A DNA stretch of 64,000 nucleotides, taken from positions 27,499,446 to 27,563,445 of the forward strand of contig NC_092640.1 of NCBI RefSeq assembly GCF_039555335.1. Direction: 5' to 3'. The position numbers and the translations under genes are program-made. Below are positions 9,781 through 62,837 of this stretch, piece by piece. The stretch comes from Amphiura filiformis (lineage: Eukaryota; Echinodermata; Ophiuroidea; Amphilepidida; Amphiuridae). Position 1 is the first letter of the stretch, and each line of letters starts with the position of its first letter. The notes beneath the pieces were generated by a model. That model was given only the letters and a program-made list of their open reading frames with translations, was not told where the DNA came from and did no database searches.

Positions 9781-9891
9781 TAAAAGAAGAATTACGCATC
9801 GCACATTAGCACATTTAAACATGAATATTTTACAAATGGAAACATATTGATGCATAGGCAGATATACCAGAGTAAAACTCCGGATATACCT

Positions 9892-9962: not shown

Positions 9963-10313
9963 TGTCCCTGATAAACAGGACTCAAGTCTGGTACTTATGG
10001 ATATGAGCAGCCAAGGGTAAACAATACAAACAACACATTACATACCAGTGTACGAGATCAATTAATGATGCTTACCCGCCAGCCTAATATAATCATACAA
10101 ACAGAGGAAGAGGCTTACGCATCATACACTGGAACATGGAAACATTCAAACATTACAAACTAGCGCACGAGATCAAATTAATGATGCTTAATCGTTATTT
10201 TTAATAATACAGGGGAAAGAAGAATTACGCATCGCACACTAGCACATTTAAACATGAATTTACAAATGGAAACATAACATGCATATACCAGAGTAAAAAC
10301 TCCAGATATACCT

Positions 10314-10384
10314 GCCTGTGCGGGGACTTGAACCCCAGACCTCTCGCTTGTCGGGCGAGCGCTCTACCACTGAGCTACACAGAC
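10314..10384 (-). tRNA. tRNA-like gene 2, formal anticodon GAC (Val)
   Basis: This is the second copy of the sequence at 9892-9962, with the same 71-nt cloverleaf, the same CCGACAA loop with C at position 33, and an intact acceptor. The T stem is TGGGG/CCCCG. Differences from copy 1 fall in the base before the anticodon stem (G for T) and in the T stem, where pairing is kept. Confidence 0.6.
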
Positions 10385-15200: not shown

Positions 15201-17421
15201 CGTAGTACGGGTATTGTAGTTTTGCCAATGCAACAAGTAAGCCAGGGAATTCATATCATGTTGCTTCAATGTGCGAAGCTATATTCCAAGTTTAAGGTGG
15301 TACCACACCTGATAAATTGTGTGACTAATTTTGCATTTTTCTCACACAAAATAACTACATACTGGTAACACAATGTATATTATAAGGGCAAGGAATCCAA
15401 TTACTCACTGAAATTTCAGTGATTCAAGACAAGTGGTTCATTATATATGTTAAGAAATGAGGTACATTGTAGCGACACCTCTTTTCTTATCATAAATAAC
15501 GTGCCGCTTGTCTTGAGTCACTGTAATTCCAGTGTAGTACCTGGATTCCACGGCCCTATAATATACATAACATTTGTTACCAGTGTGTTATTATTTTTTG
15601 AGAAAAATGGAAAAATAGTCACAAATTTATCAAGGGGTGTAGTACCACCTTAAAGAATCTCAAACGATAAAAGAAACTTACAAATATATGAAGATATTAT
15701 CCTGCTGTCGTATTCAATTATGAAACTCTGTTGATTTGAAAACATTTAAATATCCCTGACAATGGATCTGAGCAGTTGTCATGACTTGTGTTTTAAAGTT
15801 ATGTTTATCATACCAATCATACTCTACCAAGAGCGAAGCATACTGTGGTTTATCTGGTCCTTTTAAAGGATATTTATATAATATTGAATGGCTTTGAGTG
15901 TGATACAAGAATATATTGCACGAGATAGAAAAATATTGCACGAGTCGAAGACGAGTGCAATATTTTTCTATCGAGTGCAATATATTCTTGTATCACACGA
16001 AAACAAGCCATTCAATATTATTATTATTATTTATATCAGGCTTTTGCTATGCGGTAAAATGAAAATTTAAGCTTACCTAGTCACCGGGTTTAACCAATGT
16101 GTATTGTAATGTAAGCTTACCTTTTGACCTTCTTGTTTTCTGCTCTTTGCTCTCCAAAGACAATTTCGGAATAATTATATATATGTTTATTTGTAGATGT
16201 GGATTATATACTAAGGTTATCATCATCCAGAATTGCCGCGCCGCGAATTAAGTTTGTGATTTTACTTGTTTATACAGTACGAAATCTCCTGTGAGCCGTT
16301 ACGATGTCTGTAGTGTATCGTATTGTTGTGCTGTTGTATCATGACGCGTGTTGGTGCCATAACCATGGTAACTCGCGACGCGTACGCGATACGCGTACAA
16401 TATTCAAGAAATATTGTATTGCATCCGGGTATTTTAAAAATATTGTACAATATACAGTTTTATTGTATCGCTCAAAAGCCTGATATAAATAATAATAGTA
16501 TTTACACAACAAGGTCAATCTAGTTGTGAACTAATATAGGTCAGTCAATCTACATTCAAAAAAATGATGGGCAAATATTTGACAGTTTTGGACAGATTAG
16601 GTTGAACTTGACAGTATGTTTGATTCTGTATCTTTATCATTCAAGATACCATATCATGGCTACAAATATTGAGATATCCAGACAAATGAGGTATCAAAAT
16701 TTGCATTTTAAAAACTAAAATGGATTTCTTTTTTACTATTTCAGTTTTAAAATTGGATTATTTTTTAGTTAAAGGGGGTAATTACTTTTTGGGATATGTT
16801 TATATAGGACTAACGTAAATATACTAAGAACGAACCAAATTTGTGTCCTCTTTCTCAGAATGCGGAACCAGTATTTTGGACATTGGCTGTGGCACCGGAG
16901 CAACCAGTACACTCCTTGCAGCTGCCTTTCCGAGTAGCACTGTTTTGGCAGTGGACACAAGTGGTAAAGCGCTTGAAATCTTACAATCGAAAGTTCTAAA
17001 ACATAACCTTAATAACATCACCGTAGCGAAACAAGATGCGTGTACGCTTCCTTCAGACTGGTCAGGCAAGTTTGACTTTGTCTTGGCTAATGATATGGTC
17101 CATGTTACCGCCCAGCCGGCAGACGTATTACGTTGCTGCTACGAAGTGCTGAAGACTGATGGGACATTCGCTCTGATTGGTGACTACACACATAGCTCAA
17201 TAGCTAAAAATATCCAGTTCCCATATGCACCTATGCTTTATAACTTCGGTGTTTTTAATTGCATGCCCGTATCCTTAAATGAAGATGGTATGGGATTAGG
17301 TCCAGCTTGGGGTATTGAAAAAGCGGGAGAAATGATAAGAGTGGCAGGATTTACAGAGGTGCTGTTAACGCAATGCCCGACTGATATGGACGCGATGATG
17401 TTTGTATGTAAAAAGACATAG
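12278..17421 (+). CDS. SAM-dependent methyltransferase, Rv2258c-like, copy 1 (four exons)
   Basis: Exons are 12278-12458, 13190-13410, 14946-15071 and 16859-17421 (stop TAG). All have GT/AG borders, and exons 2 and 3 have exactly the lengths of copy 2. Exons 1-2 encode the winged-helix N-terminal domain of the family (MTQLVGDSHLCLSVALG, then RYVREWLGAMVTG). Exon 4 holds the Rossmann methyltransferase core with motif I ILDIGCGTGATST, the acidic post-I VLAVDTS and FDFVLANDMVH. These proteins transfer a methyl group from S-adenosylmethionine; the substrate is unknown. Compared with copy 2, one base is missing in exon 1, so the natural ATG at 12278 reads into TGA after 14 codons. An ATG at 12319 is in the correct frame and would lose only about 15 residues. 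TTTCAG directly before CAACATGG suggests a 5' non-coding exon upstream. The gene is either functional from the second ATG or a young pseudogene. Confidence 0.85.
13440..14390. other. Intron 2 of methyltransferase copy 1, left part
   Basis: AT-rich non-coding DNA with homopolymer runs (13590-13760). No exon or clear inverted-repeat element was identified. Confidence 0.4.
14395..14545. repeat. (CAC/CAT)n microsatellite in intron 2 of copy 1
   Basis: Imperfect trinucleotide repeats of CAC, CAT and CAG run for about 140 bp. They are followed by a pyrimidine-rich stretch (TTCATCTCCTGCTTCGTC) that is homologous to DNA near 41003-41020 in intron 2 of copy 2. A related CAC-rich tract lies at 32446-32520 of copy 2, so the repeat predates the duplication. 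Confidence 0.8.
15292..15653. mobile_element. TTAA-flanked foldback MITE in intron 3 of copy 1
   Basis: The element is bounded by TTAA at 15292-15295 and 15650-15653. The left end AAGGTGGTACCACACC is mirrored by GGTGTAGTACCACCTT. The inner arms share GATAAATT and CATTTTTCTCA. It is 362 bp and has no reading frame. This is a different sequence family from the 665-bp MITEs but has the same target. A half-site of related sequence (GGGGGTACTACACCC) occurs at about 26459. Confidence 0.75.
15880..16019. repeat. 140-bp strong palindrome
   Basis: The arms AATATTGAATGGCTT and AAGCCATTCAATATT are continued by GTGTGATACAAGAATATATT and TGCACGAGATAGAAAAATAT, mirrored around a short CGAAGACG centre. The region just to the right (about 16022-16492) is bounded by another inverted pair, ATTTATATCAGGCTTTT and AAAAGCCTGATATAAAT. 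This may be one composite foldback or two nested ones. Confidence 0.75.
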
Positions 17422-19086: not shown

Positions 19087-21055
19087 TTCAGTTCAGTTCA
19101 GTTCAGTTTTATTTTCATCTCAACACACATACATATAAATAACATGATATAGAAAGAAACATTTTGTAATAAATTAGTAACAATGCAATGCCAAATAATT
19201 TACAATTGAGATACCAATATTAATATTACAAAATAATATTTTAATAATGTGGTATGAGAGATGTAGATGCCACAGAAACGCAAAGCGTGCAAAGTTGTGG
19301 CACCCATTTGAAGGTTACAGACAAGTCTATACACCGATCCGAGAAGCGTTTACTGTATTTGGCCCTCTATTGACGGAACCACAGGTGTACCAGTGCGGGA
19401 GATTTAATTTGTTCAATCAATTCATGATCGTGTATTGAAAATCACTGTTGTGTACAATTCTGTATAGCATACTAAAAAGTAATGGATGGAACCCCCGACC
19501 TTGGTACACCGCAGTTTTACGTCGGGGACACCGCAGTAATGGCCTAGTCGGATTGGTGTATAGCTTAAATACAATATTCGATATTTATAAGGTTACAAAT
19601 TCTATGAATGCCATAGACAGACAACATAAAGTCCGAAAAATCAATGAAGCATAAAATGCGAACTAAAGCAGCGCATGTAAATCCATCATGCAGGAGAAAG
19701 CACTTTAAACATCATCATGTAAATATCCATTGATGAGGTTTTGTTTGAATGTTTTTTTAAATACGGTAGGAGACGGGTGAGTTTAAGGGATTGGTCAAGA
19801 TCATTCCAGAGGAGAGCACCATGTGTTTTGATGGTGTTGCTAGCAAAAACCGTATTAAATAATTGGATGTGAAAGTCTTTAGAATGTCTGGTATCGTGTG
19901 TATGGATGTCGTCATTAGTAGTAAAGAAGTTGTCGTAGAGGTCATTTGGTAGCATTTTGTAATGAAATTTATGCATAAAAATTGCTGTTTGAAATTTGAA
20001 TATGTCATGGATCTTATTGCATTTAATTGGTGGAAAAGTGGGTCAGTGTGGGCGAGCCACAAAGAATTTGTGCACGTCCTAACAACTCGTTTTTGTAGGA
20101 GAAAAAGAGAATCCAGATTGGCGTTGTTTTTATCTGCCCAGACAATTGCACAGTAAGTTAAATAGGGAAGCACAAGTGTATTATATAAGGTTTGCAAAGA
20201 GGCCTCCGGTAGAAAAGGGCGGACTTTACGTATAATACCATTATATTTTGACACAATTTTAGTGATGTGTGTAGTGTGTGATTTCCAGCTGAGGTTATCA
20301 TCAATAAGTAGGCTTAGAAATTTGGTAGTATGAACCAGATTTAATTCTGTATTATCTATTAGTACTTTTATATTGATTTCAGATTTATTATTGTATTTAT
20401 TTTTAAAAAGCATATAATTAGTTTTTTTAATGTTTAGTGAAAGTTTATTTAATTTAAACCAATTTGATATTAAAATAAGCTCAGCATTAATGATTGATTC
20501 GAGGTGATGGTGATCTTCATGCGAAAAAAGTATGTTGGTATCATCTGCGAAAAGGATAAAATGTGGGATTTTGGAACACAGGGGAAGGTCATTAATATAT
20601 AATAAGAAGAGGAGGGGGCCAAGAATTGACCCCTGTGGAACTCCGCAGGTGATATTCGTGAGAGGAGAAACTGCTTCATTAAATACCACACATTGTTTCC
20701 TATCACTGAGATAATTTCGAATCCATGTATTGGCCAGACCTCTGATACCATAATGATCGAGTTTGTTCAAGAGGATGTTGTGGTTTAAGGTATCGAATGC
20801 CTTACTGAGGTCAAGAAAAATGCCTGCAACATGATGCTTTTTATCAAGGTTTTCTGCAATTTTGCAATAAAGCTCATTAATGACCATATATGTGGATCTT
20901 TGTGGCCGGAAACCAAACTGATGAGGACTTAGAATATCATGAAGTGATATAATTACTGTAATGTTAAAAAAAGGCAACAGGGACATTAAAGTATGTAATT
21001 TAATGTTACGTGTGTGAAGGTTGTCATTCATCCAAGTAGGACTAACCACCAGTTA
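19087..21055 (-). mobile_element. Jockey/CR1-like LINE, 5'-truncated
   Basis: The element lies on the minus strand. It contains most of a reverse transcriptase (19686-21049), then about 600 bp of 3' sequence that ends at a short direct repeat, four units of GTTCA on the plus strand (19087-19109). Short tandem repeats at the 3' end are usual for CR1/L2-type LINEs. The 5' part (ORF1, endonuclease) is absent. The interval 19110-19685 contains no recognised gene. Confidence 0.8.
19686..21049 (-). pseudogene. LINE reverse transcriptase (Jockey/CR1 type), frameshifted
   Basis: RT motifs appear in order: LSPHQFGFRPQRST, FLDLSKAFDTLNH (motif A Asp), GVPQGSILGPLLFLLYIND (motif B) and FILFADDTNILF (motif C, the Asp pair). 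They are followed by the LNIKKTNYMLF and YNTLVLPYLTYCAIVW segments found after the palm in Jockey and CR1 proteins. The frame 21049-19757 is open through these. Near 19970 it shifts, and homologous C-terminal sequence continues in the neighbouring frame down to 19686 (MHKFHYKMLPNDLYDNFF). There is no endonuclease domain. The RT part is well kept, so insertion is fairly recent, but the copy cannot move by itself. Confidence 0.9.
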
Positions 21056-24777: not shown

Positions 24778-24849
24778 CATGATGGACCTCTCTGCAATGG
24801 GGGCCGTCAACCATATCGTACATTATATATACCATCCGCATAAACATTT

Positions 24850-25990
24850 TTTTCTCGGATCGACTTGGAACGCTCGGAGAATTTTACGTGGGTACATACT
24901 ACTACTACTGTGCTGAAATATCAGTAAGATCGAAGCATGTTTTGCCCAGCCAGTAGATTTTCACAAAATCCCTACTTATTTGCTATTTCTTACTGTGTAA
25001 CCAGGCCCGTACGCAGGATTTTTTTTTTGGGGGTGCTGATTTTGAAAAAGTGGACTTTTTTCCAAAGGGGGGGGATTTTGTTAAAAGTGGACTTTTCCCC
25101 CAAAATTTGGACCTTTTTTGACCAAAAAACCGTAAAAACCTGATTTTTTTGCTCGCTACGCTCGCAAATTCTTAAATTTTGGGACTTTTTGTATACTTTT
25201 GCAAATTTGGGGAGGTGCGGTCGCACCCCCGCACCCCCCCCCCCCCTGCGTGCGGGCCTGTGTGTAACTCTATATAGAGAAATCAGCAGGAACAACCTAG
25301 GAAAAGTAGGCATTCATAATGACATCATATCCAATATCTTTAGGTAGTTTATTTCATCAAATAGCAAGAAATTTCACAATGTTGGACTTGTTGCGTAGAT
25401 ATGAACTGCAAAAGTACAAACAATACATAAGATGAATTTCGAGCAGCTCTGACTTGACCAGTGGTTATAGTGTCATGTGACGTCTGACTTGCAGTAATTT
25501 TCAAGGCCGTGTGACCTGTAAGTCAACAAATGGCTAGCCGAAAATCATATGTAATTTATTTTCGGCAATGCTGCAGTTCATATCTATGCAACAATACCAA
25601 AATTGTGAAATTTGACTGAGTAGAATTGGTGAAATGCTCCATAATGCTACCCCTACCCCTTAATATAGTAACTCAAATATCATCAATATTTACCTTACAT
25701 ACATGTCTTTAGTAAAAATAATGGTAACCAATTGGAGACTGCTTGCTATTTGGTGAGGGTCCAAACAAACTACCCAAAGTATTTAATATTGGCTACGATG
25801 TCATCTGATTGATCTGAATGCCTTTTCCCAGGTTGTTTCTGCTGATTTCTGTTTTTCGCTGAAATAGCAAATAAGTAGGGTTTTGTGAAAATCAACTGCC
25901 TGGGTGAAACATGCTTCGATCTTACTGATTTTACAGCGCAATAGTAGTATGTACTCCGAGACTTCCAAGTCGATCCGAGAAAAAAAAGGG
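24850..25990. mobile_element. Foldback element, ~1.1 kb
   Basis: The left arm (about 24850-25000: TCTCGGATCGACTTGGAA, AAGATCGAAGCATG, TACTTATTTGCTATTTC) is mirrored at about 25865-25985 (TTCCAAGTCGATCCGAGA, CATGCTTCGATCTT, GAAATAGCAAATAAGTA). The core is non-coding and carries the hAT-type MITE at 25002-25260 immediately inside the left arm. Confidence 0.75.
25002..25260. mobile_element. hAT-type MITE with perfect 8-bp target duplication
   Basis: Terminal inverted repeats are CAGGCCCGTACGCAGG and CCTGCGTGCGGGCCTG. The octamer TGTGTAAC stands immediately before (24994-25001) and after (25261-25268) the element. The CAG terminus plus an 8-bp duplication is the hAT signature. It is 259 bp, non-coding, and nested in the foldback element at 24850-25990, so it is the younger of the two. 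Confidence 0.85.
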
Positions 25991-31497: not shown

Positions 31498-34400
31498 ATG
31501 GCGTCAACAACAGAAACAGAAGATGCCTTTACTAAGAGAATGTCTCAATTGGTGGGAGACAGCCATTTGTGTTTGTCTGTAGCATTAGGCGTTCAGACTG
31601 GACTGTTTGAAAAGATGGCGGAATGGGACGAACCAAAATCTTCTGAAGAGATTGCTCAAGCCACGGAGTCAAAAGAACGGTAAGATTATTGCTGCTTAGC
31701 CAGTTAACCTTTCAACTTTTTACTTTGACTTCCTTTCAACTCATTATTCGAAAACTTTTCAGGGACGCACCATTTGAATTCCATTGGGCCTGGAAGTTGG
31801 GGGTCAAGGCAAATTGTTTTTACGCCGACGAAGGCGTCAATTTTTTTAATACTAGGTATTGTCTTGGTGTTATTTTTGTTTTAATTTTCATGCATTGTAG
31901 GTGGGGAAAGTTTTTTCAGTGATAGTGGGTAAAGGTGTTTTTTTTTTCATGTACATGTAGTGAGGGATATTTTTTCAAAAACATCCAGCCCACCCCCTGG
32001 AAGTCAAATGGTACGTCCCTATGTTCATTTTATGATGACATATATTATGATAAATTGTTTCATTAATTAACCCTAGATTAAGGTTTCTAACAAATTAATG
32101 CAAGTATCTTCTCCTGAGTTCGAATATGTACTGAATGGTCAGTGAGTTTATTTTGAATAAAAACAATTTGTTCACTTGTTAAAATGCAGCTACGTTAGGG
32201 AGTGGCTTGGAGCTATGGTCACAGGCAGTATTGTTGAATTATCAACAGATTCCTCAGGAGTGGATCGATTCTTGCTACCACCATGTCGTCGTAATGCATT
32301 AACAAGAGCAGGGGCTACAGATAGTAGCACTCATTATTCACTGGCTATTCCTGCTCTGGCGGAAGTATTTGGAAAAATTGTAAACTGCTTCAAGAAAGAC
32401 GGACCAAAAGGTATGGTCAGATTACACTTGTTTAAATGGGCACCACTACCAACACCACACCGCCCTCACCACCAACACACCATCACCATCCCCCCACTAC
32501 AACCTCCACATGCACCACCATTATCATTGGGCTATTTTAGAAAATAAATACACACCCCCCTATAGAGAAGAAACTTTTCAATAAACGAAATGGCTGGATT
32601 TCCAAGTTTGCTTTCTGAAAATATGACGGGAATTCCAGTTGCCAATGTTATCGGAGATGCAGTTAAGGGATCTGGAATGAGCGTTTTGAGCGTTTCGACG
32701 GTATTTTTTGTGGGACATGAGAGCACAACAGACATATCGAATTGCATTCTGAATACGAAGAATGTCTTTCTGATATCAAATAATTTTCATTTTTTGAAAT
32801 TCACGATATGATACAAATTTTATAACAAATTAAAAAAATTTGATATTTTTCACATTTTTGATATAACAGTCCTCGAAGTAAATTTTATAAATCTAATGAT
32901 TTATTCTTAAAGTGTATGTAGCTGGGAGGAAAAGCCGACGATCAATTGAAAATTTTGACCTTTCATATTGAAGATGTGGATTTTTTTCCCAAAAAGACCT
33001 AATTGTTTTGGTGTTTTGGGAAAAAAATTCATATCTTCAATACGAAAGGTCAAAATTTTCAATTGATCGTCGGCTTTTCATCCCACCAACATACACTTTA
33101 AGTATAAATGATCAGATTTATAAAGTTTACTTCGAGTACTGTTAAATATCAAAGATATCAATTTTTAATCATTTGCCATAATAGTACAGGAGCAGCAACC
33201 TCAAAAAAATGACTTCGTTCATCCCCCACTACATACAAGGTTTGACACCATAGGTAGTTAGTATGGACCCTCTAGATCACTGCTAGGTAGGTAGTGGACT
33301 CAAATTGTGGTATCACTTTTTTTTTACAGGTCATTTTATGTATGGACGTATAATCGCATAAAATCACAAAAAATAGGACAAAATTAAGGGGTAGGGGAGA
33401 TATAAATTCCCATAACTCAACTTTTACTCATAATAATGAATTTATTTTGGTATGAATATGTAGCTAATTGATTGTTCTAATTGCCTAGTATTATTTGAAA
33501 GCAAACCTAGGTTTCATTTGATCATGATTGGAAGTGGCCAGTCCATACACTAGTGAAAAATCAGATTTTTCACAACAATGCGTAGGGTGGGTGTTTTTGT
33601 GACATTGGCTTCAAATTTTACTATTGTGCCAATTTCTGTTTTCAAAATTAATCAAGTTTCCATTTTTTAATTTTGTTTTTAATATCAAGCATATCTAGGC
33701 AAACTTTAATGTTATGGTTCAAATATTTATGTATGTGCATGTTTGCTTGCATGTTGGTTTGTGTTTTGTGGGTTTGGGGGGGGTGGGTGGGTATGTGGGT
33801 GTGGGTGCGGGGTGTGTATAGGGTTCAGGGTTGGGGTGTTTTACATGTCTTAATATGTCACTCAGCTGAACTATATAAGTTCTATTAACAAAATTTGTTT
33901 GGTAAGTTGCCATTCATGTATTAATTTGAATATTTATATGTGCGGGGTGAGATCAACCGCTGTTTGTCAGGAAAATAGACTGAAAATGTAAAAAAATAGT
34001 TACTTTTCCACATGTAGCAGCGTGTGTAACAATATTAAGGGGTAGGGGAAATATAAACCATCATAACTCAACTTCAACTCATGATAATGAATTAATTTTG
34101 GAATTAACATGTATCTAATTGATTGTTCAAACGTGTTAGTATTATTTTAAAGCAAGGCAAACATTAATTGTCAGGTAGATAGCCATAAAATGTGAGAAAA
34201 GGTTACTTTTCTATGTATAACCATGTCAAATATGGCATTATTAAGGTGGTTCGAAAGGCAAGGTTTAGGGAAATCATGAATTCCAACATTTTTGCAAATA
34301 TCTCCAAAACCTTTCATGATACAATCTCAAGTGAGTTTGTGCTTATGTAGGGATATGTTGGCCATGTTATGAAGGTAATAAAACCGTTGCCATGGTAACC

Positions 34401-37400
34401 AAGCAGTCGCTATTGGCTTCTGACCAATCACATTCAAAGTTGGTTTTTTCCTGTTTTTTCGCAAATCACTTAATTTTTCCCAATAGAAGTATACTCACAT
34501 GTTGAGTCATGTTCCTGCACACCTCCACTGATTTTCCCGTAAAAAGTTTGTAAGTAATATGGAATTTTTGGCCAAAAAACGAAAATTTCACTTTGACCCC
34601 CCCTCCACTGGGATTTTTTTGGGGGGAAAATCAGTGGAGGTGTGCAGGAACATGACTCAACATGTGAGTATACTTCTATTGGGAAAAATGAAGTGATTTG
34701 CGAAAAAACAGGAAAAACCCAACTTTGAATGTGATTGGTCAGAAGCCAATAGCGACTGCTTGGTTACCATGGCAACGGTTTTATTACCTTCATAACATGG
34801 CCAACATATCCCTACATAAGCACAAACTCACTTGAGATTGTATCATGAAAGGTTTTGGAGATATTTGCAAAAATGTTGGAATTCATGATTTCCCTAAACC
34901 TTGCCTTAGGGGAAATAAAAACCACCATAACTCAACCTTTACTCATAATAATGAATTCAATTTGGTATCAACACGTAGCTAATTGATTGTTCTAACTTGC
35001 CAGTATTATTTTTAACAGAAAAACCATAAGATAGACATAAAATATGATAAAAATGTTAATTTTCCAATGTGTAACAGCGTAAAATTTGACAATATTAAAG
35101 GTTAGGGACGTACAAACCAACGTTGATATTCCATGTCTAACAGCGTAAAATATGACAATATTAAGGGTAGGGGACATACAAATCACCAAACTCAAGTTTT
35201 ACTGATGAAAATGAATTCATTTTGGTATCAATATGTAGCTATTTGATAGTTCTAACTTTCTAGTATTATTTTAAAAGCAAAAAAGTCATTAGTTGTCCGG
35301 TAGATAGACATAAAATGTATGAAAATGTTAATATTCAATGTCTAACAGCGTAAAATATGACAATATTAAGGGGTAAGGGGACATACAAATCACCCAAACT
35401 CAAGTTTTACTGATGAAAATTAATTCATTTTGGTATCAATATGTAGCTATTTGATTGTTCTCATTTTCTGGCATTATTTTAAAAGCAATTAAATCATTAG
35501 TTGTCAGGTAGTTAAACATACAATATGAAAAAAATGTTGATATTCCATGTCTAACAGCGTAAAATATGACAATATTAAGGGGTAGGGGACATACAAATCA
35601 CCAAAACTCAAGTTTTACTGATGAAAATGAATTCATTTTGGTATCAGTATGTAGCTATTTGATAGTTCTAACCTTCTAGTATTATTTTAAAAGCAATTAA
35701 TCCATTAGTTGTCCGGTAGATAGACATAAAATGTATGAAAATGTTAATATTCAATGTCTAACGGCGTAAAATATGACAATATTAAGGGGTAGGGGACATA
35801 CAAATCACCAAAACTCAAGTTTTACTGATGAAAATGAATTCATTTAGGTATCAATATGGTAGCTATTTGATAATTCTAACCTTTTAGTATTATTTTAAAA
35901 GCAATTAATCCATTAGTTGTCCAGTAGATAGACATAAAATGTATGAAAATGTTATGATATTCAATGTCTAACAGCGTAAAATATGACAATATTAAGGGTA
36001 AGGGGACATACAAATCACCCAAACTCAAGTTTTACTGATGAAAATGAATTCATTTTGGTATCAATATGTAGCTATTTGATAGTTCTAACTTTCTAGTATT
36101 ATTTTAAAAGCAATTAAGTCATTAGTTGTCCGGTAGATAGACATAAAATGTATGAAAATGTTAATATTCAATGTCTAACAGCGTAAAATATGACAATATT
36201 AAGGGTAAGGACATACAAATCACCCAAACTCAAGTTTTGCTGATGAAAATTAATTCATTTTGGTATCAATATGTAGCTATTTGATTGTTCTCATTTTCAG
36301 GCATTATTTTAAAAGCAATTAAACCATTAGTTGTCAGATAGTTAAACATACAATATGAAAAAAATGTTGATATTCCATGTCTAACAGCGTAAAATATGAC
36401 AATATTAAGGGGTAGGGGACATACAAATCACCAAAACTCAAGTTTTACTGATGAAAGTGAATTCATTTTGGTATCAATATGTAGCTATTTGATAGTTCTA
36501 ACTTTCTAGTATTATTTTAAAAGCAATTAAGCCATTAGTTGTCCGGTAGATAGGCATAAAATGTATGAAAATGTTAATATTCAATGTCTAACAGCGTAAA
36601 ATATGACAATATTAAGGGGTAATGAGACATACAAATCACCCAAACTCAAGTTTTACTGATGAAAATGAATTCATGTTGGTATCAATATGTAGCTATTTGA
36701 TAGTTCTAACTTTCTAGTATTATTTAAAAGCAATTAATCCATTAGTTGTCCGGTAGATAGACATAAAATGTATGAAAATGTTATGATATTCCATGTCTAA
36801 CAGCGTAAAATATGACAATATTAAGGGGTAAGGGGACATACAAATCACCAAAACACAAGTTTCACTGACGAAAATGAATTCCATTTTTGTATCAATATGT
36901 AGCTATTTGATTGTTCTCATTTTCTGGCATTATTTTAAAAGCAATTAAGTTTCCCACGAGGGGTTGAAGGTCATAATGGGGCCAATACTAAAAAAATGAT
37001 CCTATCATGTTGTAATGTTGTAATCTCAAATTGTTCCTCTCATCGCTAAGAATTAAAAAAAAAGACAATTGTCATAGTTCTACGAAGCTTAGTTCAGGGG
37101 TTATAACGTCGAATATATCAAAAATATCATAAAGGTCAAATTTTAAAAATGGTCCAATTGCACCAATTAACGTAAGAAACCTCAATCGAATACTACATTC
37201 AAATTTTGGTGCAACGATTTGTATTCCCGTGTTCCCTTCACAGTTAATAAGTTGAGTTATGGTAATATTTCCCCTACCCAGTCTTTTGCGATGAAATTTT
37301 TTTTTTTTTTTCCCCTCCCCCTTACAAGACTAGTGTGTGTCAACGGTCCCTTACGCTGCTAGATATAGAAAATGACTTCTTCTGACAGTTTCTGTGTATG

Positions 37401-40400
37401 TACCTGACAACTAATGATCGCTTTGTTTATAGAAAGTTAGAACAGCCAATCAGATACATTTTGATACCAAGATAAATTCATTTTCATGAGTAAAAGTTGA
37501 GTTATGGCAGTTATAAATCTCCCCTACCCCTTAATATTGTCATTTTACGCTGTTAGACATAGAAAATTTACCTTTTCCTCACAGTTTCTGTATATCTGCC
37601 TGACAAATAATGGTCGCTTTGCTTTAAAATAATACTAGAAAGCTAGACCAATCACTTGGATATATTTTGATACCAAGATGAATTAATTTTCATGAGTAAA
37701 TGAGTTATGGCAGTTTACATTTCCCCTACCCCATAATACTGTCATATTTATGCTGTTAGACATAGAAAACGTACCTTCTTATCACAGTTTCTGTGTAACT
37801 ACCTGACAACTAATGATTGCTTTGCTTTATAATAATACTAGACAGTTAGAACAACCAATTAGATACATTTTGATACCAAGATGAATTCATTCTCATGAGT
37901 AAATATTGAGTTATGGCAGTTTATATGTCCTCTACCCCTTAATATTGTCATATTTAAGCTGTTAGACATAGAATATTTACCTTTTCCTCACAGTTACTGT
38001 GTATCTACCTGACAACTAATGATCGCTTTGCTTTGAAATAATACTAGAAAGTTAGAACAACCACTTAAATACATTTTGATACCAAGATGAATTCATTTTC
38101 ATGAGTAAAAGTTGAGTTATGGCAGTTATAAATTTCCCCTACCCCTTAAGGGATCTAGAATGAGCGTTTATGGCGTTTCGATAGTATTTTTTGTGGGACA
38201 TGAGAGCACCTCAGACGTATCGAATTGCATTCTAAATACGAAGCATGTCTTTCTGATATCAAATAATTTTCATTTTTGAAAATCACGATATAATACAAAT
38301 TTTATGACAAATTATAAAAATTTGATATTTTTCAAATTTTGATATATAACAGTCCTCGAAGTAAATTTTATAAATCTAATGATATATTCTTAAAGTGTAT
38401 GTAGCTGGGAGGAAAAGCCGACGATCAATTGAAAATTTTGACCTTTCATATTGAAGATATGGATTTTTTCCCAAAAGACCTAATGTTTTTTGGTGTTTTG
38501 GGAAAAAAAATCCATATCTCCAATACGAAAGGTCAAAATTTTCAATTGATCGTCGGCTTTTCATCCCACCTACATACACTTTAAGTATAAATCATCAGAT
38601 TTATAAATTTGACTTCGAGTACTGTTAAATATCAAAAATATCAATTTTTAATGATTTGCCATAAAATGTGTATTACATTGCGAATTTCAAAAAGTCAAAA
38701 TTATTTGATATCAGAAGGACATCCTTCGTATTCAGAATGCAATTCGATATGTCTGATGTGCTCTAATGTCCCACAATAAATACTGTCCAAACGTTCATAC
38801 CCCACCCCTTAATATTGTCATTTTACGCTGTTAGACATAGAACATTTACCTTTTCCTCACAGTTTCTGTATATCTGCCTGACAAATAATGATTGCTTTGC
38901 TTTAAAATGATACTAGAAAGTTAGAACAATCACTTAGATACATTTTGATACCAAGATGAATTCATTTTCATGAGTAAAAGTTGAGTTATGGCAGTTTATA
39001 TTTCCCTACCCTTAATATTGTCATATTTACGCTGTTAGACATAGAAAACGTACCCTTTTCTCACAGTGTCTGTGTATCTACCTGACAACTAATGGTCGCT
39101 TTGCTTTAAAATAATACTAAAATTTAGAACAATCAATTAGATTTACATATTGAATTGAATTCAATAGAATTTAATACCAAGATGAAGTCAATATCATGAG
39201 TAAAATATTGAGTTCGGATGATTTATTTTCCCCTACCCCTTAATATTTTTCTATGTTATGCTGATATACGAGTGAAATCAGTTTTTGTTGGGTTTTTTGG
39301 GGTTTTTTCTAAACATTGTTTGTCTTTTTCCCAGTGGTTACTCACGTCCTACACATAAATATTCAAAATATTACATCAATGGAAACTTGTTGTATTGTTG
39401 TTGGATTTTGTAAATGGAAGTTGGTGCAGTGTACATGTAGTGACATATTAAGATATGTACACACACACCCCTCCCCTCACCCCCACACATACCCTATGTA
39501 CACCCAGCACCCCACACACACCTCGTCCCACAGACACCCCCAACGAACTCATACATATTATAATGCTTGGAACTGTTACAATAATGTTTCCCTTGATATG
39601 CTTAACATTAAAAACAAAACAAAACATTGAAATTTAAATTAAAAAATTAAAAATGGAAACTGAATCAATTTTGAAAATATAAAGTGGTATAGTTGTGAGA
39701 TTTGAGGCCAATGTCAAACTTTACACATATGGTTTAAAAAATTAGATTACCACTCATTTATGGACTATATACTTCCAAATATGCTCAAATGAAACCTGTT
39801 TTTGTTTAAAAATAATACTAGAAAGTTAGGAAAATCATTTAGCTACATATTGATACCAAAATGAATTCAAAATCACGAGTAAAAGTTGAGTTCTTGGAGT
39901 TTATATCTCCCCTACCCCTTAATTTTGTCCTATTTTTGTGATTTTATGCGATTATACGTCCATACATAAAATGACCTGTAAAAAAAAGTGATACCACAAT
40001 TTGAGTCCACTACCTACCTAGCAGTGATCTAGAGGGTCCATACTAATTACCTATGGTGTCAAACCTTGTATATAGTGGAGGGTGAACCAAGTCCTTATTT
40101 AGGCCCCTTGTGGGATCTTGCTCCTGGACTATAAAATGTGTATTACATTGCGAATTTCAAAAAATCAAATTATTTGATATCAAAAGGATATGCTTCGTAT
40201 TCAGAATGCAATTCGATATGTCTGATGTGCTCTAATGTCCCACAATAATACTGTCCAAACGTTCATACCCCATCCTTTAAGGGCTCGGATAGCCACATTT
40301 TCACGTGTTTTGTTGTGGGACCTGAATGCACATCAGGCATATAGAATTGCATTTTGAATAAGAGGCATATCCTTCACGATAAAATTCAAATCCTAATGCA

Positions 40401-43400
40401 AATGATAAAAAATTTATATTATAGAAATTTAACAGTCCGCGAAGTAAATTTTATAAGTGTATCTAGCTGGGATGAAAAGCCGTCAATCATAGGTAAATTT
40501 TGAACTATACGTATTGAAGATATAGATTTTCCCCAAAACACCAAAATATGTATTTTCAATTGATGGTCAGCTTTTCTTCCCAGCCATACTCTAAGTACAT
40601 TATCATAAGATTTATAGAGCTAAATATCAAAAATTAAAAATATCAAATTTTAGTAATTTGCCCTAAACTTGTATTATATCGCAAATTTCATTAAACCTAA
40701 ATTGTTTGTTATCAGAAGGACATTCCTTGTATTCAGAATACAATTCGATATGTGTGATGTGCTATCAGGTTCCACAAAAATACTGTACTATTCGATTCCT
40801 TAAGTGAATGAAAATCACGAAAATGTCCAAAATGAGCTCTCAAATAAGATTTCCGATTTTGAAATGTTTTTCTGCTAGATTTTTCGCCTTTGGATACTTT
40901 AAAAGCGATCACGACTGGATAAAAAAAGGCACGAAATCCGAACTCCTCTATTAGGGGTGTTTTCTGGAATCTCCCGTTATCACACTTTTATTTGAATTGT
41001 TCTTCATCTCCTACTTCGTCCTCCTCTTTTTCTCTTTTAATATCTGCTCATTTCGTTTGCTTGTTGCTATCGTTGCTTTTTCCTTTGCTGTTGCTTCTCT
41101 TAATCATGTACATTATCCATTGATGTGCAAAAATGTGTTTCATTCTCTCTGTATTTTAAATGCTAGAACGTATTATTGAATATTCAAAATATCTTTGATT
41201 GTGTTCATGTATTTTATGCTTGTAAATTATTCAGCGCCTTGAGATTTTAATGTAATGCGCTTTATAAGAATAAAATATTATTATTATTATCATTTATCAT
41301 CTTTGCCGTCTTAATATCATTTTGATTCTCATTTTCATTTTTCCTATGTTTTGTTTCGCCTACTTCTTTTTCTTTCACTTGTTCGTCTTTCCTTTCCCTT
41401 TATTCTCTTCTGTACTTATCTCCCCTTCTTTCTCCGCCTCTCCTGTTCGTCTTCATTTTTCTGCTTTCCCCTATTTTGGTAAAACATTATCTTTACTATT
41501 CTAATCTGTTAGCCTTTGAACACAGACGTTTTCGTTACGTTATGTTATATTTACGTTAATATTACAAGTTGTATGATATACCTGTATTTTCTTATCACAG
41601 GAGTATCCTATTCAGACTATAGTGATGTACTCTGGATAGCATTAGGCGGCTCGACGGAGGCCAAATACAAGAAACACCTTGTGGCTGATGTTTTACCAGC
41701 AGTACCAGGCATGACAGAGGCACTTGGTAGGTCACCCACACTTATGTCCCGAATAAAGCCCGAATTTGTTCCGAAAATAAATCGGCAGCACTAGGCATGC
41801 GACCATGAGTTCGGGTATTGTAGTTTTGCTAATTTTGAATCGAGAGGGAATGCTTGTGATCACATTAGGCGGAGGTGCCGTATTTAGCGTTAGATTTGGA
41901 TATTTAATTATTTTCTTTATTTTCCCCCGGGTATATTGCATCAAATTCATCAAGCATGTAAGGGATTTCCCCATCCTGTTGAAGCAATGTGCAATGCTAC
42001 TAATTCAAAGTTTAAGAAATCGCACAGATGAAATACACTTGCCACCACCTATGTAGCTATGATCACCCTGCTGACAAAAAAGTAGGATTGTGAAAAGTAA
42101 TTTGCAATTTTGAAACTCTATAGTTAATATAAACGCATTTAGGGCTAACTTTTATAACGCTGACAATATACATAGGCCCATCCGAGCAGTTGTCATGACA
42201 TATTATTACCTTCACGACCCATTATTCAAAATAGCGCACTGTGATTTGTTGAAACACGTCAAGTGAAAGACACATTGGTGGTGCTCGGTGGAAGACCTTA
42301 AATTAATACAATCAATACCTCAATTTGGTGTGACATGTATCTCATTTTGATAGCGCCAGTTGAACACCTTTTAAACCAATCAATAATCCTATTGTTAAAG
42401 AGGATAATAAGCTTCTACCGTACACACAGAAATTTTTTTACACAGGTTATGTAAAAAATATACATAACATTAGGTAGCATATGAACTCCCAAACAAATAG
42501 GTATTTTTTTACATAACCATGAATTATGTAAAAATAACATAGCAGATAAGTAAAAAAATACTATGGCTATTAAGTAAAATATTTACATAACTTTTATGTA
42601 GAATTTTTTACCTCGGCTATATAGGTATTTTACTACATAATTGTTATGTATTTTTTACACAACTTATGTAAAACATACATAACATTTATGTAGCATATGA
42701 ACCCCATAACAAATAGGTATTTTTCACACAACCTTAATTAAATTTGTAAAAAAAAACATACCAGTTAAGCAAAAAAAATACTTCATTATTAGGTAGGATT
42801 GGGGCTTTCTTTCTTTCTTTCTGTTTTATTTTATGCTGAAACATAATTCATGATAGATTTGAAGTCATCAGATCTTGGTCAACTGTCAGATTCGTTCAAC
42901 AATACAATTTCATGCATGAAGTAGTTTTATTTTGTTTTTTTTTTTTTTTTTATCAGTTCAACCCGCTATAGTGAATGTTCAATGTAATTTGTAAAGCATT
43001 TCTCTCTCGCATGTATTACATGTACGATACAATGCTATAATAATACACTAAGCCACTGAAATGCTTCAAGCCTAATTCCCATTGGTACTGTAGGACTACC
43101 TACCAAAGTCATTTCAATGCATTATCACGTCTACACCGTATTACATCGCTATCTATCTCAAAACACACATTGCTATACCATGTATACACGCAGTGTCCGG
43201 GCGCAGTATACAGAACGTACAGTATCGTACTGTAATGAATGTCGTAGCACGTAATCATGATCGCGGCAATACGTACGCTGCAATGTCAATTCCAATGTAG
43301 ATAAATCTAGTAAATGAACCCATAAATAGCCATTTTTAATGTCTCAAAGATATCCATACATGAGCTTATCGAACGAATCTCCAGTTTGGTTCCAACTTAT

Positions 43401-45339
43401 GACTTCGAAACCTACCTATTTGAATGATGTTTCAGGAGGCATGCGCTACACGATCACATACACGTCGTGTCCGCCATGATTGCTTTCGGTCGGCGCTATA
43501 TTCTTACCTGAAATAGGTAAAAACTACATAAACTCGGCAAAATATCTGGCCAATGTATGTTTTGCCTTTCGAATAGGTGCATTTTAAAATTACATAACAA
43601 CTGGTAAAACATTTTGATGAAATTTTACTTAACCTGTGTAAAAAATTGTCGAAATTATACACAACATCATTATACTTGGTATTTTTTTACATAATGAAGG
43701 TCCGATTTTTCTGTGTGTACGTCTATAGAGTTTTTCAATAGCTCTATTCTTTGTTTGCTTTGGCTAAATGGCTAAATCCTGTTCAAGCGGTGGGTTACAA
43801 AGCATTATATTTTGTCTAGGTATGTATAACCAACAATTAACAATGAGAGGACATTCCTGAACATCGTTGACTTGAGGATGATTTGAAATAACCGCTAATT
43901 ATGACTGTTTGATATTTATTACCAGTAATGTGTAAAAAGAGAACACGTAGAACCGAAAAAGGTTTACCGTTTTGTTGAAGGAGCAAAGTTCAACAAACCA
44001 TAACCCCGCTTCTGGATATCGTTTGATGTCAAATGATACATGATGTATATTTTCTAAACACGAAATAAAACAAAATTGACCGGGCCGAAGTTACGGCTCA
44101 TTCGTGGTGTACGGTCACATATGTGGGGACACCTGGACCTATTAATGCCAATACCATTGCCATTAAGTTTCATTTACAAAATGAAATTTATGTAAGTATG
44201 AGTGTCAAGCCCGGTTCCGGCACTCCTTGTATCTTGGGTACTCATGCTCGTCAGAAATTTCCCGAAATTAGAGGGTATTTTGAGGTATAACGCGATTCGC
44301 GAAACACAAAAATGGGGTCATTATTCAAACCACTTATTCTCGAAATTAAAAAAGGTGCTCTTCATTTACGAATCACTAGTATAAATCATCGTGGTTTCAT
44401 TATTCTTCATTTACCAAGCCCATGCACAAATCATCTCATTTTCAATCATCCGTTTGGCGCACATGACATCAAATCACATCAACTATACGATGCATACATT
44501 CACTGGTACCGTGTATCATACGTATCCTACGTGTTTCCGTCAGAAAGGGGTATATTAGAAATATCGTTCGCGTATTGAAGGGGCGGGCACTGTTGAAGGG
44601 TAAAACATTCATGAAATCGCTAAAAAGGGGTGTTTTTATCCTGAAAACTTCGCGAATTGAGATGCAAAACGGTGTTTTCAAAGTTCACCGACGAGCATGA
44701 GTACCTGCGGATACACGGAGTGCCGGAAAACATGGTAAAATACACTTAGAACGAACTAAATTTGTATCTACTTTCTCAGAATCCGGAGCCAGTGTTTTGG
44801 ACATTGGCTGTGGCACCGGCGCAACCAGTACACTTCTTGCAGCTGCCTTTCCGAATAGCACTGTTCTGGCAGTGGACATAAGTGATAAAGCGCTTGAAAT
44901 CATACAAGCGAAAGTTCTGAAACAGAACCTTAATAACATCACCGTAGCGAAACAAGACGCGTGTAAACTTCCATCAGACTGGGCTGGAAAGTTTGACTTT
45001 GTCTTGGCTAATGATGTGGTCCATGATAGTGCCCAGCCGGGAGACATATTACGCTGCTGCTACGATGTGCTGAAGACTGATGGTACATTCGTTATGAACG
45101 ATATCTACACCCATAGCTCAATGGCTAAGAATATCCAGTTCCCATATGCACCTCTGGTTTACAACTTCAGTGTTTTTCATTGTATGCCCGTATCCTTAAA
45201 TGAAGATGGTATGGGATTAGGTACAGCCTGGGGTATTGAAAAAGCGGAAGAAATGATAAGAGCTGCAGGGTTTACAGAGGTCCAGTTAACACGATGCCCA
45301 ACGGATATGGACGCGATGTTTGTATGTAAAAAGACCTAG
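31498..45339 (+). CDS. SAM-dependent methyltransferase, Rv2258c-like, copy 2 (four exons)
   Basis: Exons are 31498-31679, 32190-32410, 41601-41726 and 44780-45339 (TAG). They join to a 363-codon frame (362 residues), the usual length of the family. The winged-helix domain spans roughly residues 14-135 and the methyltransferase core roughly 175-362. Motif I is VLDIGCGTGATST at about 182-194, the acidic post-I is VLAVDIS, and FDFVLANDVVHD follows. The ATG has good context (CAACATGG) and follows a TTTCAG that may be an acceptor of a 5' non-coding exon. All junctions are GT/AG with phases identical to copy 1. Intron 2 is 9.2 kb because it holds a split MITE, the 6.95-kb inverted-repeat element and a second MITE. 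No break was found, so this copy is probably functional. The methyl acceptor is unknown; the family also occurs in bacteria. Confidence 0.9.
32663..33181. mobile_element. TTAA palindromic MITE, copy C, left portion
   Basis: The element begins at TTAAGGGATCTGGAATGAGCG and carries the full left arm and most of the right arm, up to TTTGCCATAA. The sequence then breaks and resumes at 40132 with TAAAATGTGTATTAC, exactly as in uninterrupted copies (38646-38666, 47236-47256). The break is due to the insertion at 33182-40131. Confidence 0.9.
34241..34908. mobile_element. Near-perfect palindromic MITE within the left arm
   Basis: The arms are almost identical: GGCAAGGTTTAGGGAAATCA at the left and TGATTTCCCTAAACCTTGCC at the right, meeting around 34590. 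It starts with TTAAGGTGGTTCG at 34241. The right terminus lacks the matching CGAACCACC and ends near GCCTTAGGGG, so it seems to be deleted. The very high arm identity suggests a young element or ongoing homogenisation. No counterpart is present in the right arm. Confidence 0.8.
35095..36950 (+). repeat. ~208-bp tandem repeat array, left arm
   Basis: Units begin ATTAAGGGGTAGGGGACATAC near 35366, 35576, 35784, 35993, 36204, 36408, 36614 and 36824, a spacing of about 205-210 bp. Each unit holds CTCAAGTTTTACTGATGAAA, GGTATCAATATGTAGCTATT and CAATGTCTAACAGCGTAAAA. More diverged single units occur at 33385 and 34028. Neighbouring units are very similar, which suggests local expansion. Confidence 0.9.
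37240..39930 (-). repeat. ~205-bp tandem repeat array, right arm (inverted)
   Basis: The same unit runs in reverse: CCCCTACCCCTTAATATTGTCA-type junctions recur near 37523, 37727, 37931, 39009, 39234 and 39914, with CGCTGTTAGACATAGAA and TTTTGATACCAAGATGAATT in each. These units differ more from each other and from the left array than the left units differ among themselves. A TTAA MITE interrupts the array at 38146-38812. Confidence 0.85.
38146..38812. mobile_element. TTAA palindromic MITE, copy D, nested in the right arm
   Basis: It is bounded by TTAA at 38146-38149 and 38809-38812. The outer sequence CCTACCCC on the left and TATTGTCATT on the right join into a normal array junction once the element is removed, so the target was the TTAA in the repeat unit. 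It is full length (667 bp) and close in sequence to copies C and E. Confidence 0.9.
40132..40280. mobile_element. TTAA palindromic MITE, copy C, right portion
   Basis: It continues the arm broken at 33181 (TAAAATGTGTATTACATTGC) and ends CATACCCCATCCTTTAA at 40277-40280. The terminal TTAA is shared with the next element. Confidence 0.85.
40277..40803. mobile_element. Diverged TTAA-type MITE, copy F, abutting copy C
   Basis: It starts TTAAGGGCTCGGATAGCC and ends CGATTCCTTAA (TTAA at 40800-40803). It keeps the family blocks (GCACATCAGGCATATAGAAT, AAGCCGTCAATC, ATTCAGAATACAATTCG) at lower identity and is shorter (about 527 bp). It sits directly beside copy C and shares its TTAA, so one of them inserted into the terminus of the other. 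Confidence 0.75.
40990..41520. other. Intron 2 of copy 2, pyrimidine-rich right end
   Basis: T/C-rich sequence (TTCATCTCCTACTTCGTC and later TTTCCCTTTATTCTC) homologous to the end of intron 2 in copy 1. There is no exon before 41601. Confidence 0.5.
42423..43717. mobile_element. TA-flanked foldback element, ~1.3 kb
   Basis: Ends CACACAGAAATTT and AAAATCGGACCTTCATTATG-type mirror with terminal TTTTTCTGTGTG. TA stands on both sides (42421-42422, 43718-43719). The interior near both ends has many short ACATAAC/GTTATGT and TAGGTATTTTT blocks. A TA duplication suggests a Tc1/mariner-type non-autonomous element. It splits an older element related to that at 22386-22938, whose pieces lie left (about 42300-42420) and right (43720-44120). 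Confidence 0.7.
44202..44745. repeat. Foldback element in intron 3 of copy 2
   Basis: CCGGCACTCCTTGTAT and GTACTCATGCTCGTC near 44217-44252 are mirrored by GACGAGCATGAGTAC and ATACACGGAGTGCCGG near 44690-44728. The element ends only some 45 bp before exon 4 and is absent from the matching position of copy 1. Confidence 0.7.
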
Positions 45340-46726: not shown

Positions 46727-47391
46727 TTAAGGGATCTGGAATGAGCGTTTTGAGTGTTTCGACAGTATTTTTTGTGGAACATTAGAGCACATCAGACATA
46801 TCGAATTGCTTTCTGAATACGAAGAATGTCTTTCTGATATCAAATAAGTTTTATTTTTTGAAATTCACGATATAATACAAATTTTATGACAAATTATTAA
46901 AATTTGATATTTTTCACATTGATATATAACAGTCCTCGAAGTAAATTTTATAAATCTAATGACATATTCTTAAAGTGTATGTAGCTGGACGGAAAAGCCG
47001 ACGATCAATCGAAAATTTTGACCTTTCATATTGAAGATATGGATTTTTTTCCCAAAAAGACCTAATTTTTGTTGGTGTTTTGGGAAAAAAATCCATATCT
47101 TCAATACGAAAGGTCAAAATTTTCATTTGATCGTCGGCTTTTCATCCCTCCTACATACACTTTACGTATAAATCATCAGATTTATAAAGTTTACTTCGAG
47201 TACTGTTAAATAGCAAAAATATCAATTTTTAACCATTTGCCATAAAATGTGTATTATATTGCGAATTTCACAAAATCAAAATTATTTGATATCAGAAGGA
47301 CATTCTTCGTATTCAGAATGCAATTCGATATGTCTGATGTGCTCTAATGTCCCACAATAAATACTGTCCAAATTCATACCCCACCCCTTAA
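46727..47391. mobile_element. TTAA palindromic MITE, copy E
   Basis: It is bounded by TTAA at 46727-46730 and 47388-47391. Start GGGATCTGGAATGAGCG; end ATTCATACCCCACCCC. It is full length (665 bp) and close to copies C and D. It lies in the flank downstream of methyltransferase copy 2. Confidence 0.9.
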
Positions 47392-61690: not shown

Positions 61691-62829
61691 GCTATCAGCA
61701 GTAGATAGCAATTTATACTTTCAGCAGTAGATAGCAATTCATGCTATCAGCAATTCATGTTATCAGCAATTCATGCTATCGGCAATTCATGCTATCAGTA
61801 GTATATAGCAATTAATGCTATCACTAGTAGATAGCAATTAATGCTATCAGCAGTAGATGGCAATTAATGCTATCAGCAGTGGATAGCAATTAATGCTATC
61901 AGCAGTAGATAGCAATAAATGCTATCAGCAGTAGATAGCAATAAATGCTATCAGCAGTAGATAGCAATTAATGCTATCAGCAGTAGATAGCAATTAATGC
62001 TACCAGCAGTAGATAGCAATTAATGCTATCAGCAGTAGATAGCAATTAATGCTATCAGCAGTAGATAGCAATAAATGCTATCAGCAGTAGATAGCAATAA
62101 ATGCTATCAGCAGTAGATAGCAATTAATGCTATCAGCAGTAGATAGCAATTAATGCTACCAGCAGTAGATAGCAATTAATGCTATCAGCAGTAGATAGCA
62201 ATTAATGCTATCAGCAGTAGGTAGCAATAAATGCTATCAGCAGTAGATAGCAATTAATGCTATCAGCAGTAGATAGCAATTAATGCTATCAGCAGTAGAT
62301 AGCAATTAATGCTATCAGCAGTAGATAGCAATTAATGCTATCAGCAGTAGATAGCAATAAATGCTATCAGCAGTAGATAGCAATATTTATGCTATCAGCA
62401 GTAGATAGCAATTAATGCTATCAGCAGTAGATAGCAATTAATGCTATCAGCAGTAGATAGCAATTAACGCTATCAGCAGTAGATAGCAATTAACGCTATC
62501 AGCAGTAGACAGCAATTAATGCTATCAGCAGTAGATAGCAATTAATAATATCAGCAGTAGATAGCAATTAATGCTATCAGCAGTATAAACCAATTAATAA
62601 TATCAGCAGTAGATAGCAATTAATAATATCACAGTAGATTGTAATATTCATGCTATCAGCAGTAAATAACAATTCATGATATCAGCAGCAATTCATGCTA
62701 TCAGCAGTGGATAGTATTTCATGCTATCAACAGTAGATAGCAATATGCATGCTGTCAGAGGTAGATACTATATCAATTCGTGCTATCAGCAGTAGATAGC
62801 AATTCATGATGTCATTAGCGGTAGATAGC
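61691..62829. repeat. 26-bp hairpin-forming satellite array
   Basis: About 40 units of 26 bp: GCTATC, AGCAGTA, GATAGC, then a 7-base spacer AATTAAT or AATAAAT. Each unit contains an exact 6-bp inverted repeat around a 7-base loop. In the middle there is a 156-bp (six-unit) higher-order repeat marked by the variant GCTACC at 61999 and 62155. Units at both edges are more degenerate, as expected for unequal exchange. Confidence 0.95.
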
Positions 62830-62837
62830 AATATAAA

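What the first reader, a model, noticed from the sequence alone, without database searches (positions are those of the whole stretch)
33182..40131. Giant foldback element whose arms are opposed satellite arrays
A 6.95-kb segment has matching inverted ends, a likely TAA duplication, and an otherwise uninterrupted MITE on both sides of it. Both arms are built from the same ~208-bp repeat in opposite orientation, with no transposase frame seen. This is an apparently mobile satellite: a transposon carrying, or made of, tandem repeats. The Foldback element Tetris of Drosophila virilis is a known analogue, but this sequence is not one I recognise. It could seed satellite DNA elsewhere in the genome.
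Basis: partly seen in the sequence, partly recalled or inferred. Interest (0 to 1): 0.85.

Follow-up and report, generated by a model that had tools for sequence, protein, structure and literature searches.

The report
Foldback transposon armed with satellite repeats
A 7-kb non-coding insertion, apparently between two exons of a gene, has two facing arms made mostly of one ~207-base tandem repeat; it looks like a jumping element that carries satellite-like arrays, but only one copy could be examined.

Summary
Window 33182-40131 (6,950 bp) is a single insertion: it interrupts a TTAA-flanked MITE, and the flanks joined without one TAA match three uninterrupted copies of that MITE in the window across the site. 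The arms are homologous and inverted over about 1.1 kb, through a non-satellite spacer as well as the repeats. Each arm carries a ~207-bp tandem unit, 14 unit matches left and 8 right, none significant elsewhere in the window. No Pfam family passed its cut-off in the 10 of 27 open frames scanned. Best reading: a non-autonomous foldback-type DNA transposon. Two additions: the arms had probably already diverged (16-24%) when it landed, whereas 186 bp near the ends differ by 1.6%; and the nine inner left units form their own clade, with signs of a four-unit higher-order repeat. The architecture is known (Tetris, Galileo, Tm1); the 3-bp TAA duplication is unlike those three. PIF/Harbinger is possible, not shown. 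No genome is held: no sure second copy, no test of spread; a weak, decayed possible relative lies at 25574-25806.

The parts
33182..40131 (.). foldback-type element, 6,950 bp
   Evidence: inverted ends, TAA duplication and empty-site match to three MITE copies
33179..33181 (.). target-site duplication TAA, left copy
40132..40134 (.). target-site duplication TAA, right copy
32667..33181 (+). host MITE, left part (TTAA at 32663-32666)
   Evidence: 92-94% identical to the three nearest copies in the window; TTAA read
40135..40276 (+). host MITE, right part (TTAA at 40277-40280)
   Evidence: TTAA read
33182..33381 (+). left terminal domain; 33225-33410 is identical to the right arm at 181 of 184 aligned bases
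39925..40131 (-). right terminal domain
33382..33507 (+). outermost left unit, profile positions 2-128 only
   Evidence: nhmmer E 8.9e-34
39795..39924 (-). outermost right unit, profile positions 2-131 only
   Evidence: nhmmer E 2.5e-33
33508..33951 (+). left spacer, non-satellite, homologous to the right spacer
   Evidence: nhmmer E 1.3e-35; 313 of 411 aligned bases identical
39342..39794 (-). right spacer
33952..34236 (+). left array, outer part: partial unit (profile 126-196) and unit L1
34247..34906 (.). nested hairpin MITE in the left array, arms 291 bp and 98% complementary
   Evidence: edges
34907..36949 (+). left array, inner part: units L2 to L11; L3-L6 and L7-L10 look like a duplicated four-unit block
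36950..37246 (.). middle domain, 297 bp, no other match in the window
37351..38149 (-). right array, inner part: units R6 to R3 (a unit fragment lies at 37247-37279)
38150..38808 (+). nested insertion of the same MITE family as the host MITE (TTAA 38146-38149 and 38809-38812)
   Evidence: TTAA read
38820..39246 (-). right array, outer part: units R2 and R1
25574..25806 (-). possible decayed relative: a terminal-domain match followed in order by a unit match
   Evidence: nhmmer 13.5 bits, E 4.8e-4, bias 14.2; best of 20 resampled windows 7.1 bits; suggestive only

Best explanation
A non-autonomous, cut-and-paste DNA transposon of the foldback kind. Shown: one insertion with a TAA duplication into a MITE; inverted homologous arms; opposed arrays of one unit; no coding match in the frames scanned. 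Inferred: an ancestral element had long terminal inverted repeats that already held at least one copy of the unit core and the spacer. The arms drifted apart. Tandem duplication (unequal exchange or slippage) multiplied the unit in each arm, most recently in the left one. A transposase made elsewhere recognised the near-identical end segments and moved the whole lopsided element into this MITE. Two MITEs also sit in the arrays; whether they came before or after the landing is open. The ends stayed alike either by gene conversion or because they must match to move.
For: Empty site in 3 of 3 uninterrupted MITE copies. Arm homology through terminal domain, outer unit, spacer and inner unit. 22 unit matches in the element, opposed by arm. 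Inner left units L3-L11 a clade at 100/99, right units R1-R6 at 92/94. Lag-4 identity of left units 96.7% against 90.0-92.5% at lags 1, 2, 3 and 5; 1,152 of 40,320 orderings reach it. Host MITE private substitutions, 14 of 643, allow at most 7.3% arm difference since landing (upper 95%); the spacer (98/411), the rest of the outer unit (18/97) and 33952-34236 (44/272) exceed it, 33225-33410 (3/184) does not. Pfam: of 10 open frames none reaches a cut-off.
Against: One copy only; repeated mobility is not shown. The monomer tree (19 of 22 matches) does not reject one clade of all left units (p-AU 0.127; without the outermost unit 0.30) or of all right units with their outermost one (0.322), so separate growth of the arms rests on L3-L11 and, less firmly, R1-R6 (92/94, not starred). 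The tree pairs L3 with L7 (65/76) and L4 with L8 (94/80) but not L5 with L9 or L6 with L10, as a clean four-unit duplication would. After the right spacer no unit remainder is found (545 of 1,000 shuffles score as high), though the left has one. Terminal domain and unit share no significant stretch, and 33 of 97 columns are invariant over 19 units, with one run of five or more across lineages (AACTCAA), so no clear transposase-binding motif stands out. The dating assumes one neutral rate for MITE and arms. 17 of the 27 open frames of 50 aa or more overlapping the element were not scanned.
Confidence: 0.8

Rival explanations
1. An assembly artefact: one satellite arm read twice in opposite orientation, or a mis-joined array.
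For: No reads are on hand; inverted arrays are hard to assemble (general knowledge).
Against: Arms differ by 16-24% of aligned bases outside the ends and have different unit numbers, different nested MITEs and largely different unit clades. The outer junctions are exact against the MITE.
Confidence: 0.04
2. The satellite came first and the ends are secondary: a pre-existing inverted satellite block was captured between two ends of a short transposon and moved once.
For: The near-identical segment covers only about 190 bp at each end; what follows is much less alike.
Against: Arm homology runs on from the end segment through the truncated outer unit and the shared spacer in the same order, as in a long inverted repeat.
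Confidence: 0.12
3. Two independent insertions or an inversion brought two arrays into opposition at this site.
For: Unit numbers and divergence differ between arms.
Against: Both outer junctions fit one insertion with a TAA duplication into one MITE.
Confidence: 0.03
4. A version of the main reading: the left array grew mostly after landing here, so that what moved was a smaller foldback element and the long left satellite arm is local.
For: Left A-type units differ by only 2-5% and units four apart by 3.3% on average, of the same order as the age of the host MITE (2.2% private substitutions).
Against: None decisive for the left arm. Right units are 7-19% apart, mostly more than the 7.3% that the same clock allows since landing, so the right array at least probably travelled; this was not tested formally.
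Confidence: 0.4

Closest known systems
Tetris of Drosophila virilis (PMC4079207; abstract and the first parts of Results and Discussion seen)
   Same: Non-coding foldback element; outer flanking domain, then ~220-bp tandem units in the arms, then a middle; the unit shares sequence with the outer flanking domain (37 bp, ~80%); unit number differs between alleles of one copy.
   Different: Tetris TSD is 8-10 bp, here 3 bp (TAA). Tetris arms reach up to 1,735 bp; here about 3.1 kb left and 2.2 kb right without nested MITEs (sums coordinates). No sequence comparison with Tetris was run.
Galileo, P superfamily, Drosophila (PMC3573991, PMC3688188; passages seen)
   Same: Long inverted ends; in subfamily F of D. 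mojavensis tandem repeats of ~210 bp whose number differs between the two ends of one copy.
   Different: 7-bp duplication; none, two or three repeats per end in F, four in Galileo G of D. buzzatii. In Galileo G the first two repeats hold transposase binding sites; no such motif stands out here.
Tm1, Mutator/Foldback elements of root-knot nematodes (PMC3169594; passages seen)
   Same: Composite inverted ends with tandem motifs in different number at the two ends.
   Different: ~14-bp motif, 1-9 units; 45 of 53 elements with 8-10 bp duplications.
Mcmar, Tc1/mariner-like element of Meloidogyne chitwoodi (mentioned in a passage of PMC3169594)
   Same: A foldback-like lengthening of the ends (355 bp, direct repeats and palindromes) outside the Mutator and P classes.
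   Different: Much shorter ends; its paper was not seen.
PIF/Harbinger (PMC4482050; passages seen)
   Same: 3-bp TWA duplication; TIR lengths of 5-1042 bp are on record.
   Different: About 93% of TIRs are under 60 bp and they usually start with A or G; here T. No transposase seen.
Helitrons/Helentrons with central satellite arrays, Pacific oyster (PMC8268682; passages seen)
   Same: Short satellite arrays carried inside a mobile element.
   Different: A short tandem array between conserved end boxes there; here two opposed arrays and a TAA duplication.

Membership tests
Foldback-type elements (architecture, not a lineage) | long inverted ends with internal tandem repeats | tested here: met
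Foldback-type elements (architecture, not a lineage) | flanked by a target-site duplication at a verified empty site | tested here: met
   by paralogous MITE copies, one insertion
Tetris / Mutator-type foldback | 8-10 bp target-site duplication | tested here: not met
   the flanks overlap by at most 4 bp (ATAA), 3 by symmetry of the ends
Galileo (P superfamily) | 7-bp target-site duplication | tested here: not met
PIF/Harbinger | TWA target-site duplication | tested here: met
   TAA, one insertion only
PIF/Harbinger | TIR usually begins with A or G | tested here: not met
   begins with T if the duplication is TAA; a tendency, not a rule
PIF/Harbinger | DDE transposase and Myb/SANT protein in an autonomous relative with the same ends | not testable with these tools
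   no genome held
Satellite DNA | long arrays of the unit elsewhere in the genome | not testable with these tools
   no significant unit match elsewhere in the 64-kb window; genome not held
Helitron/Helentron | no target-site duplication (criterion recalled) | tested here: not met
   TAA duplication present

The most novel reading that the evidence does not exclude
A foldback transposon of the PIF/Harbinger or another 3-bp-duplication class, in which one seed unit gave rise to two satellite arrays independently, one per arm, one of them already with higher-order structure, and the whole lopsided pair moved as cargo into a gene region: a mobile satellite caught soon after transposition.
Probability: 0.3. 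Interest if true: 0.68.

Novelty: new variant of a known kind. Interest (0 to 1): 0.5.

Why it matters
How new satellites start and spread is an old question. Foldback elements with satellite-like arms are one proposed source; Tetris is the worked case seen here. In this window the empty site fixes the landing, the host MITE gives a rough clock, and the two arms are two growths of one unit. If the family exists in the rest of the genome, one could order seeding, amplification and transposition directly. It would also carry the foldback architecture with satellite-length units to a class with a 3-bp duplication.

Tried and rejected
Second copy in the window: a profile of both ends finds the two ends, a weak hit at 25678-25806 (E 0.0058) and one at chance level (E 5.9); the 12-bp tips have 7 further matches, each with 2 mismatches. 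With the outer unit added the weak hit becomes 13.5 bits, E 4.8e-4, but with a bias of 14.2 bits; the best of 20 resampled windows has 7.1, the reversed window 1.2. A 1.1-kb tile there scores best of the tiles outside the element (178.9; next tile that does not overlap it 146.4; 300 resampled sequences at most 144.7; with the right arm as query 154.9). It lies in one arm of another, 1.1-kb hairpin element (24847-25986) and about 125 bp of it are missing from that element's other arm. I keep it as suggestive only.

Unit remainder beyond the right spacer: not supported. Stretches shared by terminal domain and unit, as for a common transposase site: none beyond shuffles. Coding: 10 of 27 open frames of 50 aa or more, some given one residue short, gave one hit, E 0.25, below its cut-off. 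Rfam over the window at gathering scores: two tRNAs only. Public collections: exact patterns from the terminal domain, the unit and the MITE in viral contigs and from the MITE in genome contigs gave 0 matches; these hold viral, bacterial and archaeal contigs, so the zeros say little. Six short stretches sought in paper texts: 0 papers. The organism was not identified.

Literature: searches; the lists were cut (15 of 36 and 12 of 35 shown). Seven papers were opened, none in full: PMC4079207 (sections in part), PMC12628747, PMC8268682, PMC4482050, PMC3573991, PMC3688188, PMC3169594 (passages); the rest were seen as listings. In what I saw no foldback element with satellite-length arm units and a 3-bp duplication is described; the library holds open-licence papers only. 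Sea-urchin foldback elements were sought; only the Tetris paper came up, which mentions them.
Full report
What was checked. The window holds no ambiguous bases and is about 64% A+T. No whole genome is held for it, so the evidence below is from these 64 kb and from papers.

The insertion. The segment 33182-40131 lies inside a MITE flanked by TTAA. Three uninterrupted copies of that MITE are in the window (1832-2490 on the minus strand, 46731-47391, and 38150-38808, the last inside the element). With one TAA removed, the joined flanks align with all three across the site (93.3-94.3% identity). The flanks overlap by four bases (ATAA); symmetry of the ends (TAGTACAGGAGC and TAGTCCAGGAGC) selects TAA as the duplication. 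This is a single transposon-like insertion by the sequence itself. More diverged pieces of the MITE family (40309-40786; 3903-4578) were not used.

The arms. Aligned as inverted partners: first 12 bases 11 of 12; next stretch 25 of 28 aligned bases in 42 columns; 33225-33410 181 of 184; the rest of the outermost unit 79 of 97; a spacer without satellite 313 of 411; then a unit-bearing stretch 228 of 272. Gaps are not counted in these figures. The homology is thus not only that of a shared satellite: the spacer lies at the same place in both arms. The high-identity segment stands out (3/184 differences against 18/97 in the rest of the outer unit, Fisher p 7.6e-7).

The unit. A profile iterated on its own hits finds 22 unit matches in the element, 14 on + from 33382 to 36949 and 8 on - from 37247 to 39924, and two chance-level ones elsewhere. 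By those coordinates they cover 3,789 bp, about two thirds of the roughly 5.6 kb left when the two nested MITEs are taken off. The outermost unit is cut at profile position 128 on the left and 131 on the right; the innermost left unit ends at 130. Beyond the left spacer the unit resumes at position 126, as if the spacer lay inside a unit. On the right no such remainder is detectable (545 of 1,000 shuffles score as high).

Unit history. 19 of the 22 matches went into the tree; three fragments (33952-34023, 35118-35156, 37247-37279) were left out. The nine inner left units form a clade (100/99) and the six right units another (92/94, not starred); the outer left units L1 and L2 and the two truncated outermost units fall outside the left clade. 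One clade of all left units is not rejected (p-AU 0.127), nor one of all right units with their outermost (0.322). The left array has two unit types in the order A B A A A B A A B. Units four apart are 96.7% alike on average, against 90.0-92.5% at lags 1, 2, 3 and 5; 1,152 of 40,320 orderings of the eight full units do as well, and L6 and L10 share a small insertion. This points to a duplicated four-unit block, a young higher-order repeat. Against it, the tree pairs L3 with L7 and L4 with L8 but not L5 with L9 or L6 with L10.

Relative dating. The host MITE carries 14 private substitutions in 643 columns, the copy inside the right array 8. If the arms had been identical on landing, they should differ now by at most 7.3% (upper 95%, twice the host rate). 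The spacer differs by 23.8%, the rest of the outer unit by 18.6%, 33952-34236 by 16.2%, all above that; the end segment differs by 1.6%, below it. So by this clock, which assumes one rate, the element landed with arms already unlike each other but with matched ends. Whether the matched ends reflect gene conversion or the demand of the transposase is open. The left array may have grown partly after landing.

Coding. No open frame in the element exceeds 105 aa; 10 of 27 frames of 50 aa or more were scanned and none matched a Pfam family above its cut-off. Mobility must therefore come from a transposase elsewhere (inference).

Setting. Two tandem copies of a methyltransferase-like gene lie in the window. 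Pfam Methyltransf models match 16828-17418 and 44701-45336, and HTH_65 matches 32161-32544 (the corresponding stretch of the first copy was not scanned). Three exon-like stretches correspond between the copies (76.7%, 48.5% and 82.7% protein identity). The element sits between the first two of these stretches of the second copy (about 32.1-32.4 kb and 41.6-41.8 kb); no DNA match to the first copy is seen between them at E 1e-10 on the same strand. Whether these are exons of one transcript is inference.

Comparison. Tetris has the same layout: outer flanking domain, ~220-bp units that share sequence with it, middle domain, no coding. Galileo subfamily F has ~210-bp repeats that vary independently in the two arms, and in Galileo G two of the four repeats bind the transposase domain. 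Tetris, Galileo and Tm1 make 7-10 bp duplications; this one makes TAA. A mariner-like element with foldback-like ends is also on record (Mcmar, mentioned), so the layout is known to arise in several classes. PIF/Harbinger makes TWA, but its ends usually start with A or G and are mostly under 60 bp. I therefore do not file it under any superfamily: it works like a foldback element; its lineage is open.

Verdict. A real, well-supported foldback-type insertion with satellite-like arms; a new variant of a known kind. What keeps the score at 0.5 is that only one copy could be seen.

Noticed in passing
13078-17421 and 32096-45339: Two tandem copies of a methyltransferase-like gene; the element lies between the first two exon-like stretches of the second copy.
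   Followed up: partly
24847-25986: Another hairpin element of about 1.1 kb; one arm holds about 125 bp that the other lacks, and this part and its neighbourhood resemble the terminal domain and unit of the element.
   Followed up: partly
61782-62832: A 26-bp tandem array of about 40 copies, with a 16-bp-period array next to it (61733-61798).
   Followed up: no
34247-34906: A hairpin MITE with arms 98% complementary in the left array; its left edge reads TTAAGG and its right end looks shortened.
   Followed up: partly
6193-6855, 19757-21052: Reverse transcriptase fragments (RVT_1, E 1.4e-23 and 6.4e-24).
   Followed up: no
40309-40786: A diverged stretch of the host MITE family directly downstream (about 66-68% identity).
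   Followed up: no
9891-9962 and 10313-10384: Two tRNA genes on the minus strand.
   Followed up: no
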